A stretch of DNA of 64,000 bases from Deltaproteobacteria bacterium. Its GTDB lineage: Bacteria > Myxococcota > Myxococcia > Myxococcales > SZAS-1. A program made the position numbers and the translations under genes. Position 1 is the stretch's first letter; every line of letters starts with the position of its first letter. Of the stretch, positions 40,287 through 63,325 are shown piece after piece. The stretch lies in the NCBI GenBank assembly GCA_018266075.1, contig JAFEBB010000035.1, forward strand, positions 1 to 64,000, written 5' to 3'. The notes beneath the pieces were generated by a model, which ran no database searches, was not told the DNA's origin, and worked only from the letters and a program-made list of their open reading frames with translations.

Positions 40287-40295
40287 GAACCGTGT

Positions 40296-40368
40296 CTGGT
40301 TCCTGGTTCCTGGTTGCTGGTTCCTGGCGGTCTCCCAACCAGGAACGAGGAACCAGGAACCAGGAACC
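40296..40368. repeat. Gene-less palindromic heptamer array between frzCD and frzE
   Basis: Left arm 40296-40327 is TTCCTGG-type heptamers, a 9-nt spacer CGGTCTCCC follows, and right arm 40337-40368 is the inverted copy. The two ~32-nt arms differ at only a few positions and would form a long hairpin in frz mRNA. Arms match the termini of the element at 62845-63325. Confidence 0.85.
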
Positions 40369-58706: not shown

Positions 58707-58918
58707 GTGCAGCTCTCGTCGACCAGGATGCAGCGGCCGCCGTCGGGCGCGGGCTCTTCGCTGAGCAGCTTGGCGCCGCTCGGGCACGAACCGCCGCACT
58801 CTACCGTGATCAGGCACCCGCCGTCGGCGAGATCGCTCCGGCAGGAGACCGAGCTGCAGCCCGTCGTCGCGAAGGATACGGATATCGCTATCGCGAGCGC
58901 CCAGCGGCCAGCGCTCAC
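58703..58918 (-). CDS. Small Cys-rich lipoprotein in the kam operon
   Basis: 71 aa from a GTG overlapping the kamE stop (GTGA). Signal and lipobox: GRWALAIAISVSFATTGC. Six cysteines in the mature part (CRSDLADGGC, CGGSC). Function unknown; position within lysine-degradation genes is conserved only as far as this window shows. Confidence 0.6.
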   Translation of the reverse strand: MSAGRWALAIAISVSFATTGCSSVSCRSDLADGGCLITVECGGSCPSGAKLLSEEPAPDGGRCILVDESCT

Positions 58919-59670
58919 GCCGGCTTCCCGCCCTTCTGGATGAGGTGCTCGACGATGTAGTTGGCCACTTCGCTGGGCTTGGTGCCCGGGCCGAAGCCAG
59001 CGTCGAAGCCGAGCTCGAGGGCGAGCTTGTGGTCCACGCGCGGGCCGCCGAGCAGCAAGATGGTCTTGCCGTGGATGCCTTTGGCTTTTGCCTTCTCGAT
59101 GAAGTCGCGCGAGTTGTCCTTGTGCACGTCGCGCTGGGTGACGACCTGCGAAATCAAGATCGCGTCGGCCTTGCCGGCCATCGCCTGCTCGAGCAGCGAC
59201 TCGTTGGGCACCTGCGAGCCGAGGTTGTGCGCGTCGAACCAGGGGTAGCGCTCGAGGCCGTAGTCGCCGCGGTAGCCCTTCATGTTGAGGATGGCGTCGA
59301 TGCCCACGGTGTGGGTGTCGGTGCCAGTGCACGCGCCGAAGACGACGACCTTGCGCGCGAGCTCCTTCTCGATGCGAGCGTTTATCTCGTCGAAGCCGAG
59401 CTTGCGGACGATCACCTCGGGGACGTCGATCTCCGAGTAGTCGAGCGTGTGCGTGGTGCGGCCGTAGACGATGAAGAACGTGTAGTCGTCGGCGGCGGGT
59501 TCCATCGTCGAGACGAGCGCGTTCTCGAAGCCGAACTTCTTCGCGAACTGGAGCGCGGCTTCTTTCGCTTTCTCCGAGCGCGGAACAGGCAGCACGAAGC
59601 TGAGCTGTACCACGCCGTCGTCTTTGCGGTCGCCGTAGGGGCGGATGATTTGCTTGTCGGCCTTGGCCAC
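58915..59670 (-). CDS. kamE: Lysine 5,6-aminomutase beta subunit
   Basis: 251 aa from the GTG at 59670 with GAGGG upstream. It carries the cobalamin site D-x-H-x2-G (DTHTVGID, His121) and the PLP lysine in LNMKGYRGDYGLERYPW (Lys132). The 11-residue spacing equals that in characterised KamE. With KamD it moves the amino group of D-lysine or L-beta-lysine. Rossmann-like GKTILLLGGPRVDH follows. Confidence 0.95.
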   Translation of the reverse strand: MAKADKQIIRPYGDRKDDGVVQLSFVLPVPRSEKAKEAALQFAKKFGFENALVSTMEPAADDYTFFIVYGRTTHTLDYSEIDVPEVIVRKLGFDEINARIEKELARKVVVFGACTGTDTHTVGIDAILNMKGYRGDYGLERYPWFDAHNLGSQVPNESLLEQAMAGKADAILISQVVTQRDVHKDNSRDFIEKAKAKGIHGKTILLLGGPRVDHKLALELGFDAGFGPGTKPSEVANYIVEHLIQKGGKPA

Positions 59671-59681
59671 GACGTCCCTCG

Positions 59682-60170
59682 CTACTTCGCAGGCTGCGCG
59701 TACTTGATGCCCATCAGGAGCTGCGTGAAGGTCTTCTCGTACTTCGGCCCGGCGTGGGTGAGCTCCACCCAGTCGAGCAGGAAGAACGACTTGCCATTGC
59801 AGCCAATCAGGCGGCGCTGGCGGTGCTTCCGGTCTTCCGTGAACGTGGTCTGCGTCACCGCGGGCTGTCCGTCGATCACCGTGGCCGCGTACGTCTCCTG
59901 GTTCTCCTTCGCGCCGGCGGCGACCTTCGACACCACCTCGTCCAAGCACGCCTGCGCATCGACGGCCTTGTCCTTCTCGCCGAAGTCGATGCTCATCTGC
60001 GCGTCCTTGCCCGGCGAGCTGAACACGAACGTCGTGCCGTCCTTGCTGCGGACGAAGCCCTGCGGCGCGGTGACGGTGATGTTGTGCGCGGTCGCGGTCG
60101 GCGGCGGCGTAGCGCTCGGCGACGTCACGAGGGGCGCCGCGGAAAGCATGAGTGCGATGAGCGTGTGCAT
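59682..60170 (-). CDS. Secreted hypothetical protein between kamD and kamE
   Basis: 162 aa; ATG with AGGAG six bases upstream. Signal peptide MHTLIALMLSAAPLVTSPSA. The mature domain (FVRSKDGTTFVFSSPGKDAQMSIDFG, RRLIGCNGKSFFLLDWVE, LLMGIKYAQPAK) is not recognised. It splits two genes that encode subunits of one enzyme, which is unusual. Confidence 0.7.
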   Translation of the reverse strand: MHTLIALMLSAAPLVTSPSATPPPTATAHNITVTAPQGFVRSKDGTTFVFSSPGKDAQMSIDFGEKDKAVDAQACLDEVVSKVAAGAKENQETYAATVIDGQPAVTQTTFTEDRKHRQRRLIGCNGKSFFLLDWVELTHAGPKYEKTFTQLLMGIKYAQPAK

Positions 60171-60179
60171 GCGTTGCTC

Positions 60180-61778
60180 CTAAGCGCGCTTGAGCCGGTC
60201 GGTGCGGATGGGCTCGGGCGTGGGTGTCTTCTCGAGCAGGTCGAGGAAGGGGTTGAAGTAGTCGTGGCCCTTCTCGAAGACGCCGCTGAGTCCCTTGCCG
60301 CCGGTCTCGGTGCGCTTCACGTCGCCGTACTTGCCCATGCCGATGGTGGCGACCATGCCGTCGCGACGGGTCTCCTCGAGCAGGCTCATCGCCTCCCGGA
60401 AGACCTGGCGCGCCCGGTTGGCGATCTTGCCGTTCGGGTTGATGGTGAATTCCTGATCGATGCCGTCGAACGCGCGGTACACGTAGTTGGCGCACTTCAG
60501 CGCGACGTAGCGGTCCATCAGATACGGGTTGTGCATCGCCTCGGTCATCATGCCGAGCAGCTGGATGCCCTGGTGGGTCCACATGGCCACGATGTCCGCC
60601 ATGACGTCGTACGCGTGGGTGAAGAAGATGTCGCCCGAGCTGTGCTTGGTGGGCGGCATGTACTTGCACGGCGCGTTCGGGAAGCAGCGCCGCACGAGCA
60701 TGGCCTGGGCGAGCTCGAGCAAGAACGTGTCCGGTCGCGCGGGATCGATCTCGTACGAGTGGCCGAGGCCGAGCTGCCACTCGCCGAGGCCGGCGCGCAT
60801 GGCGAACTCGCGGTTGATGAACTGCGAGGCGATCACCGTGTGGCCGGCGTCGAAGGCATCGGCGGTGGTGATGTAGTTGTCCTCGCCGGTGTTGATGATG
60901 ATGCCGGCCATGCTGCAGATGCGGCGCGAGAAGTACTGATCGCAGAACGTGCGCCGCATGTTGATGTCGCGGAACAAGATTCCGTACATCGCGTCGTTGA
61001 GCAGCATGTCCAGCCGCTCGTGCGCCGCCATGAAGGCGATCTCCGGCATGCACAAGCCGGAGCTGTAGTTGGTGAGCTGGATGTAGCGCTTGCGCTTCTT
61101 CGACTCGTCGTCGAGCGCCTCGCGCATGATCCGGAAGTTCTCCTGCGTCGCGTAGGTGCCGCCGTAGCCTTCGGTCGTGGCGCCGTGGGGCACGTAGTCG
61201 AGCAGCGACTGCGCGGTCGAGCGGATCACCGCGATGACGTCGGCGCCGGCCTGCGCAGCCGCCCTCGCCTGCTCCACGTCGTCGTAGATGTTGCCGGTGG
61301 CGACGATGACGTACTTGTGCGGCGCGGGCGCCGTGCCCAGCTCGAGCCGGAGCGTGTTGCGCTGATCGATGCGCGCCTTGAGCTCGTCGAGCGCAGAGCG
61401 CGTCTCGGCGCGCATCTCGTCGTGGATGGCCTTGTCCTCGGCGGCGTCCGTCGTCAGCTTCGCGAGCGCGTCCGACGGCATCGCGGTCAGTCGCTCCACG
61501 GCCTCCAGCGGGCTCGCGGCGCCCATGCGCAGCGCGCGGCCGAGCCAATAGGCGGCGCCGCGATGGAGCACCTTGGCGTCGTGGAGCTTGTCCACGAGCA
61601 GGTTGCAGAGCGGCGCGCCTTGCGGCCCGACGCCCGTGATTCCGAGCAGGCGCGTCACCGTGCGCTCGATGCTCACGGACGAGTGCCGCTGGATGTGCTT
61701 GAAGAGGTCTTCGGTGATCTCGTGCGCCAGCTGCTTGGCGCGGTCGATCTCCGAGTCGTCGATGAAGAGCCCAGACAT
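60180..61778 (-). CDS. kamD: Lysine 5,6-aminomutase alpha subunit
   Basis: 532 aa, normal for KamD. Conserved stretches include VIVATGNIYDDVEQARAAAQAGAD, PHGATTEGYGGTYATQENFRIMREAL, QLTNYSSGLCMPEIAFMAA, NTGEDNYITTADAF, and SGDIFFTHAYDVMADIVAMW. Adenosylcobalamin- and PLP-dependent; works as an alpha2beta2 complex with KamE. Confidence 0.95.
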   Translation of the reverse strand: MSGLFIDDSEIDRAKQLAHEITEDLFKHIQRHSSVSIERTVTRLLGITGVGPQGAPLCNLLVDKLHDAKVLHRGAAYWLGRALRMGAASPLEAVERLTAMPSDALAKLTTDAAEDKAIHDEMRAETRSALDELKARIDQRNTLRLELGTAPAPHKYVIVATGNIYDDVEQARAAAQAGADVIAVIRSTAQSLLDYVPHGATTEGYGGTYATQENFRIMREALDDESKKRKRYIQLTNYSSGLCMPEIAFMAAHERLDMLLNDAMYGILFRDINMRRTFCDQYFSRRICSMAGIIINTGEDNYITTADAFDAGHTVIASQFINREFAMRAGLGEWQLGLGHSYEIDPARPDTFLLELAQAMLVRRCFPNAPCKYMPPTKHSSGDIFFTHAYDVMADIVAMWTHQGIQLLGMMTEAMHNPYLMDRYVALKCANYVYRAFDGIDQEFTINPNGKIANRARQVFREAMSLLEETRRDGMVATIGMGKYGDVKRTETGGKGLSGVFEKGHDYFNPFLDLLEKTPTPEPIRTDRLKRA

Positions 61779-61819
61779 GCAGGGTTTCTATCGGGCGATC
61801 CCCTGCTCGGCAAGACGCG

Positions 61820-62881
61820 TCACGTCGCGTAGCGCTCCTCGAAGAGCTTGCGAATCGCGGGCACGCTGCGGACGAGGTCGAGGCACAGGTCGGCGTGGCC
61901 GGGTACGTAGCCGTTGCCCACGTACATCGTGAGGTCCTTGCCGAGGCCTTCGGCGCCGAGCGCGGCCGCGGTGAAGCTGGTGGCCATGGAGAAGAAGATG
62001 ACCGAGCCGCCGTCGCGCGCGCAGAGGATCGCGGCCATCTCCGTCTCGGGCACACTGGCGACGTTCACCACCATGTCGGCGAGCTTGCCGTCGTTGAGCT
62101 TCTCGAGCGCCTGCATGGCGTCGATGGCCTTGGTGGCGTCGACGGGAGCGCCCGCGTCGATGAGGCCGTCCTTCTTGAGGCGCTCGATGGCCGGGCCGCT
62201 GATGTCGAGGGCGAGCACCTTGGCGGCGCCGCTCTTCTTGGCCTGCGCGGCACAGAGCGCGCCGCTCTTGCCCGCGCCGAGGATGAGCACGGTCGCTCCG
62301 GGCTTCACGTGCCGCGCGACCAGCGCGGGCGCACCGCACACATCGAGCGCGGCGAGGCTGAGCGTGTCCGGCAAATCGGTTGGCAGCTTGGCGTAGATGC
62401 CGCTCGCGAACAGGATGGCCTGGGCCTTCACGTCGACGCGATCGATCTTGGGATGCACCGCGAGGATCTTCTCGAGGCGCAGCGGCGTGAGCGAGAGCGA
62501 AACCAGCGTGGCGATTCGGTCGCCGACCTGGAGCTTCTCGCGCGCGGGATGCGCCGGACCGATCTCCGCGACGCGACCGATGAGCATTCCGCCGGAGCCA
62601 GTGACCGGGTTGTGCATCTTGCCGCGCCGCTGAACGATCGCCTGGATGTGCGCAGCGATCTTCGCTTCGTCGCCGTGCTCGGCCTTTTCGATCTGGCGGA
62701 ACGACGCGGCGTCCACGTTCAGCGATTCCACATCAATCAACAGCTCGTCCGGACCGAGCGCCAGGTTGGGATCGATGGACTCGGCGCGCTGCGGGAGCAC
62801 GCCGTTGGGATTCACCACTCGGCGCAGGCCGAAAGGATCGCTCGTCAGTTCCTGGTTCCTGGTTCCTGGTTCCTGGTTCAT
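61820..62881 (-). CDS. kdd: L-erythro-3,5-diaminohexanoate dehydrogenase
   Basis: 353 aa. It oxidises 3,5-diaminohexanoate, the KamDE product. NAD-binding site TVLILGAGKSGALCAAQAKK; other blocks are GSGGMLIGRVAEIGP, YAKLPTDLPDTLSLAALDVCGAPALVARHV and MYVGNGYVPGHADLCLDLVR. The first ~12 residues (NQEPGTRNQE) are translated from the heptamer repeat; an AGGTGG site precedes the ATG. The next enzyme, the 3-keto-5-aminohexanoate cleavage enzyme (Kce), is not in the window. Confidence 0.93.
   Translation of the reverse strand: MNQEPGTRNQELTSDPFGLRRVVNPNGVLPQRAESIDPNLALGPDELLIDVESLNVDAASFRQIEKAEHGDEAKIAAHIQAIVQRRGKMHNPVTGSGGMLIGRVAEIGPAHPAREKLQVGDRIATLVSLSLTPLRLEKILAVHPKIDRVDVKAQAILFASGIYAKLPTDLPDTLSLAALDVCGAPALVARHVKPGATVLILGAGKSGALCAAQAKKSGAAKVLALDISGPAIERLKKDGLIDAGAPVDATKAIDAMQALEKLNDGKLADMVVNVASVPETEMAAILCARDGGSVIFFSMATSFTAAALGAEGLGKDLTMYVGNGYVPGHADLCLDLVRSVPAIRKLFEERYAT
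62845..62879 (+). repeat. Left inverted terminal array
   Basis: TCAG then four and a half TTCCTGG heptamers. It forms the first codons of kdd on the opposite strand. Confidence 0.85.
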
Positions 62882-62938
62882 CGGTCCACCTTGTCAGAGC
62901 TGGCTGATATGGCCGCCTCGGGCGCGAAAGGGGGCGGG

Positions 62939-63304
62939 ATGGCGAGTTATGAGGACTTGATGGTTTGGAAGGACGCGATGGACTTTGCCGAGAAGGCGTT
63001 TCGGCTCACTCGACGATTTCCGTTTGAGGAACGATTTGAGCTCGCGTCGCAGCTCAAGCGGTCGGCCGCTTCGGTGCCATCGAACATCGCAGAAGGCCAG
63101 CAGCGCAACTCTCGCGGTGAATTCGTCTACTTCCTGGGAGTCGCGAGAGGCTCGTTGGCCGAAGCCCTGACACAGATTCGACTTGCGGGCCGGCTCGACT
63201 ACCTCGAGTCAGTCGAGGTCGTTGAAATGCTTGAGCACGGAGATCGCATCGGGCGGATGCTCAACGGCTTGCGATCGAGCTTGCGACCAACAACCAGGAA
63301 CTAG
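62939..63304 (+). CDS. Four-helix-bundle protein (23S rRNA IVS / Avd-like family)
   Basis: 121 aa. Family signature is clear: YEDLMVWKDAMDFAEKAFRLT, FELASQLKRSAASVPSNIAEG, FVYFLGVARGSLAEALTQIRLA, LEHGDRIGRMLNGL. Members are encoded in 23S rRNA intervening sequences and, as Avd, beside diversity-generating reverse transcriptases; their role here is unknown. No reverse transcriptase or rRNA lies nearby. Its TAG stop is created by one variant base (CTAGG for CCAGG) inside the right terminal array. Confidence 0.93.
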   Translation: MASYEDLMVWKDAMDFAEKAFRLTRRFPFEERFELASQLKRSAASVPSNIAEGQQRNSRGEFVYFLGVARGSLAEALTQIRLAGRLDYLESVEVVEMLEHGDRIGRMLNGLRSSLRPTTRN

Positions 63305-63325
63305 GAACCAGGAACCAGGAACTGA
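63291..63325 (-). repeat. Right inverted terminal array
   Basis: Inverted copy of the left array with two mismatches, one of which makes the stop codon of the enclosed gene. Confidence 0.85.

What the first reader, a model, noticed from the sequence alone, without database searches (positions are those of the whole stretch)
62845..63325. Small element with heptamer-array inverted termini around one four-helix-bundle gene
35-bp inverted repeats made of TTCCTGG units enclose only a 23S-IVS/Avd-like gene. One variant base in the right arm makes the stop codon, so gene and repeat are co-adapted. Mobility without a transposase and the function of this gene family are unexplained.
Basis: partly seen in the sequence, partly recalled or inferred. 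Interest (0 to 1): 0.75.

Follow-up and report, generated by a model that had tools for sequence, protein, structure and literature searches.

The report
S23 gene inside heptamer-array mobile element
A small bacterial gene of unknown function sits between two inverted arrays of a 7-letter DNA repeat, and the same arrangement recurs around its relatives across many bacterial phyla with a different repeat each time, which points to an undescribed kind of mobile DNA and a possible source of the unexplained 7-letter repeats in bacterial genomes.

Summary
Two arms of (TTCCTGG)n, 31 of 32 bases complementary, flank one PF05635 (S23/23S-IVS-like) gene. In this genome the array occurs at about 45 listed places; only this one holds a gene. 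It is absent from 146 other class genomes.

Relatives chosen by protein similarity alone show the same layout. 59 of 71 loci have a period-7 array within 200 bp (control segments 2.9%; other independent periods at most 3 of 71), and the right arm is the reverse complement of the left. A further 18 of 18 plasmid loci have arrays. Divergent S23 proteins carry period-6 arrays, sometimes in the same genome, so unit length follows the protein clade (Fisher 4e-25). Unit sequence is nearly genome-specific.

A sister element has precise empty sites in at least seven related genomes, and 90-94% identical copies sit at unrelated sites in another genome. So these are mobile elements, with gene-free arrays as likely non-autonomous copies, resembling REPIN/RAYT in logic but with no known transposase. 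The S23 fold matches the DGR protein Avd.

That S23 acts on the arrays, and how they move, is inferred. The 'co-adapted stop codon' claim is weak. I found no published link between S23 genes and heptamer arrays in the library searched.

The parts
62847..62879 (+). Left arm: tandem heptamer array (TTCCTGG), about 4.7 units, outer end AGTTCC
62939..63304 (+). S23 / 23S-IVS-like four-helix-bundle gene, 121 aa, PF05635
   Evidence: AlphaFold pLDDT 95.4; Xcc0516 fold TM 0.91
63292..63323 (-). Right arm: inverse heptamer array, about 4.6 units; overlaps the gene's stop codon
63302..63304 (+). TAG stop created by the one base (63302) in which the two arms differ
   Evidence: read directly from the sequence
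40291..40368 (.). Gene-free hairpin of two inverted arrays of the same heptamer: a likely non-autonomous copy

Best explanation
The feature is one copy of a widespread, undescribed class of small mobile element ('S23 array element'). It consists of one S23/PF05635 gene bounded by inverted tandem arrays of a short unit of fixed length, 7 nt here. Shown by comparison: the array-gene-array unit is gained or lost as one piece, the two arms of an element match each other, unit length follows the S23 protein clade, and the unit sequence is nearly genome-specific and turns over fast. Inferred: the S23 pentamer recognises the arrays as single strands (DNA or RNA), roughly one repeat per subunit, and brings the element, and in trans gene-free arrays and hairpins, to a host nuclease, polymerase or reverse transcriptase that does the copying. 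The gene-free arrays would then be non-autonomous copies, as REPINs are to RAYT transposases. The inverted arms let the transcript fold out and be trimmed, as RNase III does with 23S rRNA IVS elements, so insertions into operons are tolerated.
For: 59 of 71 relatives have period-7 arrays within 200 bp, against 2.9% of 1309 control segments and at most 3 of 71 for the other independent periods. Right unit equals the reverse complement of the left with 0-1 mismatch in 38 of 43 loci, against about 15% for mismatched pairs. 18 of 18 plasmid loci have arrays. Unit length follows protein subfamily: 72:1 versus 5:41, Fisher 4e-25; 7 changes on the tree versus 34.7 shuffled. TTCCTGG arrays occur only in this genome of 147; CCGGCTA essentially only in G035; AGGCTTC dispersed in G044. 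Empty sites: the joined flanks of the G035 element match contiguously in G047 (87%), G044, G018, G013, G038 and others; also Nostoc versus Calothrix nrdB-nrdA. Copies 90-94% identical at unrelated sites in G018. Fixed polarity: the upstream array is G-rich on the coding strand in 51 of 57. Fold equals the Xcc0516 pentamer and Avd of the DGR ribonucleoprotein.
Against: No biochemistry. No recombinase motif is known in S23, and the source of DNA cutting and joining is unidentified. No target-site duplication was recognised, and the empty sites differ by about 10 nt of unalignable sequence at the junction. Most gene-free arrays in this genome are single rather than paired, which a simple hairpin-transposon model does not predict. 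About one-fifth of the S23 genes examined show no clear array. The arrays peak at 4.4 units, not 5.
Confidence: 0.62

Rival explanations
1. The arrays are an independent mobile or slippage-prone repeat family spread by other (host) machinery, and the S23 gene is a passenger that only moves when two inverted arrays happen to flank it.
For: Most array copies in this genome have no gene; no catalytic motif is known in S23; AGGCTTC arrays also occur at a few sites in genomes where S23 was not detected, such as one long array in G142.
Against: A passenger would not be the same protein family in every phylum examined, with matching arms, nor would repeat length follow the protein subfamily within one genome. 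S23 is the only gene seen between arms here.
Confidence: 0.17
2. S23 is a nucleic-acid-binding regulator or nucleoid-type protein; the arrays are its binding sites, autoregulating its gene and marking other loci. The pair spreads mainly by horizontal transfer and selection, not as a mobile element.
For: Arrays lie at gene starts and ends, Avd-like proteins bind RNA (established knowledge), and arrays near genes were proposed to be regulatory in other bacteria (PMC4692102, PMC4679880).
Against: Precise empty sites, several near-identical copies at unrelated sites in one genome, gene-free hairpins, and insertion between genes of unrelated conserved operons.
Confidence: 0.13
3. The element works at the RNA level like the 23S rRNA IVS: it moves through an RNA intermediate copied by a resident reverse transcriptase, with S23 acting like Avd, and the arms are RNase III-type stems.
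For: Fold match to Avd in DGR complexes; Coxiella's rRNA IVS has an S23 ORF with heptamers directly upstream and is cut by RNase III (PMC4990558); fixed strand polarity of arms; fast rewriting of units.
Against: No reverse transcriptase lies in or beside the elements read here; no difference in arm length that would mark the 3' end of a copied RNA.
Confidence: 0.25

Closest known systems
23S rRNA intervening sequences (IVS) with an S23 ORF (Coxiella, Leptospira)
   Same: S23-family ORF inside complementary termini, described as a selfish or possibly mobile element; Coxiella's IVS has tandem heptamers (GACAGAT) just before the ORF (PMC4990558).
   Different: The window element and those studied here lie between protein genes, not in rRNA; their whole arms are heptamer arrays; many gene-free relatives are scattered in the genome. 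The paper did not generalise the heptamers.
REPIN / RAYT systems
   Same: One gene-bearing locus with matching termini plus many short genome-specific non-autonomous copies, often as hairpins (PMC3116915).
   Different: RAYTs are tyrosine (HUH) transposases and REPs are about 20-nt palindromes; here the protein is an Avd-like helix bundle and the repeat is a 7-nt tandem array.
Heptameric simple repeats (Xanthomonas GGGAATC, Nostoc GGGGATT, Beggiatoaceae TAACTGA)
   Same: Dispersed arrays of one heptamer type per genome, about 4 units, in Xanthomonas often as inverted pairs (PMC4692102, PMC4679880). X. campestris also has the S23 protein Xcc0516 (2gsc).
   Different: They were read as G-quadruplex, regulatory or unexplained repeats and not linked to S23 genes. 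The Xanthomonas gene's flanks could not be checked here.
DGR accessory protein Avd
   Same: Same fold, TM about 0.78; weak family similarity.
   Different: No reverse transcriptase, template or variable repeat in the element; below the NCBIfam Avd cut-off.

Membership tests
PF05635 23S_rRNA_IVP / TIGR02436 four helix bundle protein | Profile score above curated cut-off | tested here: met
   121 bits vs 33.8; 116.6 vs 24
PF05635 23S_rRNA_IVP / TIGR02436 four helix bundle protein | Four-helix-bundle fold of the Xcc0516 type | tested here: met
   pLDDT 95.4; 2gsc TM 0.91, rmsd 0.8
23S rRNA intervening sequence (IVS) | Insertion inside a 23S rRNA gene | tested here: not met
   Window element lies between protein-coding genes
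23S rRNA intervening sequence (IVS) | Complementary termini enclosing an S23 ORF | tested here: met
   Arms 31 of 32 complementary
Diversity-generating retroelement | Adjacent reverse transcriptase with template/variable repeats | tested here: not met
   Only the S23 ORF lies between the arms and the neighbouring genes are unrelated; Avd model 25.9 bits vs cut-off 80
Insertion sequence / MITE of a known transposase family | Recognisable transposase in the autonomous copy | tested here: not met
   Only PF05635, TIGR02436 and Avd-type families match
Insertion sequence / MITE of a known transposase family | Target-site duplication | tested here: inconclusive
   None evident at the G035 empty sites; about 10 nt at the junction do not align
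REPIN/RAYT | RAYT tyrosine (HUH) transposase gene | tested here: not met

The most novel reading that the evidence does not exclude
S23/PF05635 proteins define a separate, ancient class of mobile element whose termini are self-renewing tandem arrays with a unit length set by the protein, and the unexplained dispersed heptamer (and some hexamer) repeats of bacteria are its non-autonomous products. This would also give a function, after decades, to the '23S rRNA intervening sequence protein'.
Probability: 0.5. Interest if true: 0.92.

Novelty: categorically new. Interest (0 to 1): 0.85.

Why it matters
It ties together three loose ends: the unknown function of the S23/four-helix-bundle family, the over-abundance of heptameric repeats in bacterial genomes, and the origin of 23S rRNA intervening sequences. 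It gives a rule that can be tested at once (S23 clade predicts repeat length; the gene-flanking unit predicts the genome's dispersed repeats). It points to movement without a known transposase, involving an Avd-like protein. It may also explain why S23 proteins appear 'CRISPR-associated' in genome mining, since some copies sit inside cas operons.

Tried and rejected
Chance or low complexity: rejected by shuffles, reversed patterns, other periods and distant segments. Stop-codon co-adaptation: weakened, because the same variant occurs in gene-free arrays and a stop lies 7 codons on. rRNA IVS membership of some fetched loci (L079, L082, L088, L100), suspected from cross-phylum DNA similarity: Rfam finds no rRNA there and L100 lies beside a release-factor-like gene, so dropped. 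Length polarity of the arms (a sign of target-primed reverse transcription): no difference. Anti-phage defence: no PADLOC hit. Phages: no match. The Anabaena/Dolichospermum and Ruminococcus L096/L101 comparisons show presence/absence, but the other allele holds a different repeat, so they are not clean empty sites.

Full report
What is there. At 62847-62879 the window holds AGTTCCTGG(TTCCTGG)3TTC and at 63292-63323 its inverse; 31 of 32 positions pair. Between them lies one gene (62939-63304, 121 aa) of PF05635 / TIGR02436. The right array runs over the gene's end: the only mismatch between the arms (63302) makes the TAG stop. The same AACTAGG variant occurs in gene-free arrays elsewhere in this genome, and without it a TGA would follow 7 codons later, so this is not strong evidence of co-adaptation. 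The left arm reaches the 5' end of the neighbouring lysine-fermentation gene (3,5-diaminohexanoate dehydrogenase), whose longest ATG ORF begins next to the arm and reads through it, so it would start with MNQEPGTRNQEL.

The genome. The array occurs 139 times at up to 3 mismatches, with 0 for the reversed control. These collapse to about 45 places among those listed. Some are hairpins of two inverted arrays with short loops (one at 40291-40368 of this window), more are single arrays of about 3-5 units, and only one encloses a gene. Outer ends often read CAGTTCC...GGAACTG. None of 146 other genomes of the class has the 18-base array.

The rule. 71 relatives fetched by protein similarity alone, from Clostridia, Bacteroidota, Chloroflexota, Cyanobacteria, Patescibacteria, Planctomycetes, Acidobacteria and Proteobacteria (names as in the record titles, many of them metagenome bins), were scanned. 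59 have a period-7 array within 200 bp. Control segments more than 700 bp away have one in 2.9% of cases, and the other independent periods between 4 and 15 are near zero (period 14 is the harmonic). Where both sides have an array (43 loci, the window's and one relative's included), the right unit is the reverse complement of the left with 0, 1 or 2 mismatches in 20, 18 and 5 cases; mismatched pairings give 0-1 in about 15%. Eighteen plasmid loci, fetched separately, all have arrays, a few with period 8 (the threshold was somewhat looser there). Arrays peak at 31 nt (4.4 units) on both sides, and the upstream array is G-rich on the coding strand in 51 of 57 skewed cases.

Unit length follows the protein. 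PF05635 is found in 32 of 145 class genomes. Proteins near the window's own are flanked by heptamers; more distant ones mostly by hexamers (e.g. CGACGT, GGGAAA), one by pentamers (L286), even within one genome (G035, G145). For subfamily versus period the table is 72:1 and 5:41, Fisher 4e-25. On a tree of 117 proteins period changes 7 times against 34.7 when shuffled. Related rows are not independent, so the tree count is the fairer figure; the short alignment leaves many forks unresolved.

Unit sequence is nearly genome-specific and turns over. CCGGCTA, the unit beside the S23 gene of G035, is scattered in G035 and nearly nowhere else, same-genus genomes included. AGGCTTC is scattered in G044; elsewhere it was seen in one long array in G142 and at three single sites in two other genomes. 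A third unit, GCGGCTT, is shared by G047, G032 and, in decayed form, G035, so genomes can hold more than one. At one position inside a transporter-like ORF, G035, G047 and G044 carry arrays of three different units, either by rewriting or by repeated insertion. Proteins 80-100% identical share the exact unit in only about half of pairs, yet the arms of each element match.

Movement. The flanks of the G035 element, joined without it, match contiguously in G047 at 87% and in G044, G018, G013, G038 and further genomes, that is, precise empty sites; about 10 nt at the junction do not align and no target duplication is seen. A Nostoc plasmid has an element between nrdB and nrdA where Calothrix has none. 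Elements sit between cas6 and cas4 in Anabaena sp. 90 and, with another unit, in Pseudanabaena galeata, while relatives lack them there, and between cas10 and cmr3 in Picosynechococcus. In G018, copies 90-94% identical over about 550 bp lie at unrelated sites. The window's own copy has no close relative held, so its own empty site is untested.

The protein. The AlphaFold model (pLDDT 95.4) matches Xcc0516 of Xanthomonas campestris (2gsc, TM 0.91), a homopentamer as cited in PMC4990558, then 2rld and Avd, alone and in DGR reverse-transcriptase complexes. A polar motif around Q-x-x-R...S-x-P-S-N-I-A-E-G-x-x-R is nearly invariant, though the set was seeded by query peptides and is biased to similarity.

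How it most likely works. Shown by comparison: a discrete unit of array, S23 gene and inverse array is gained and lost, and gene-free arrays with the same unit populate the same genome. Inferred: S23 recognises its array, period by period, and mobilises its own element and gene-free copies in trans, using host or resident enzymes for strand cutting and copying. Whether the intermediate is DNA or RNA is open; the Avd kinship and fast rewriting of units make an RNA route worth testing.

Known work. Heptamer repeats are described without a cause in Xanthomonas and Nostoc (PMC4692102) and Beggiatoaceae (PMC4679880). Coxiella's rRNA IVS has heptamers just before its S23 ORF (PMC4990558). A CRISPR mining paper lists '23S rRNA IVP' in a figure legend on associations of CRISPR adaptation modules (PMC10910872). 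REPIN/RAYT papers (e.g. PMC3116915) describe the nearest logic. None of the papers read links S23 genes to heptamer arrays; preprints and most subscription papers were not searchable, so priority is not certain.

Noticed in passing
window 58915-62881 (- strand): Lysine-fermentation genes: lysine 5,6-aminomutase alpha and beta and 3,5-diaminohexanoate dehydrogenase; the dehydrogenase ORF reads through the left arm, giving an MNQEPGTRNQEL N-terminus.
   Followed up: partly
L147 2989-3357; L151 1307-1666; L304 689-1045: S23 elements inside CRISPR operons of cyanobacterial plasmids (between cas6 and cas4 twice with different units; between cas10 and cmr3), which may explain the reported CRISPR association of this family.
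   Followed up: partly
G018 loci L259-L265: Period-6 S23 elements with extra long palindromic stems inside GGGAAA arrays, many copies per genome.
   Followed up: partly
L100 1430-1768: The S23 gene lies directly upstream of a gene resembling peptide chain release factor 1; DNA beside the S23 genes of L079, L082 and L088 is similar, so the location may be conserved.
   Followed up: partly
G000:C66:1-61 and several G051 and G037 contigs: Assembly contigs end in or near these arrays, so draft genomes probably under-count the elements.
   Followed up: no
L152 870-905: The S23-free cas6-cas4 spacer of Pseudanabaena ABRG5-3 holds its own short heptamer array (ATTACGA).
   Followed up: no
L101 353-655 and L148 1020-1270: Where the S23 element is absent, the same spacer carries an unrelated repeat element, suggesting these spacers are insertion hot spots.
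   Followed up: no
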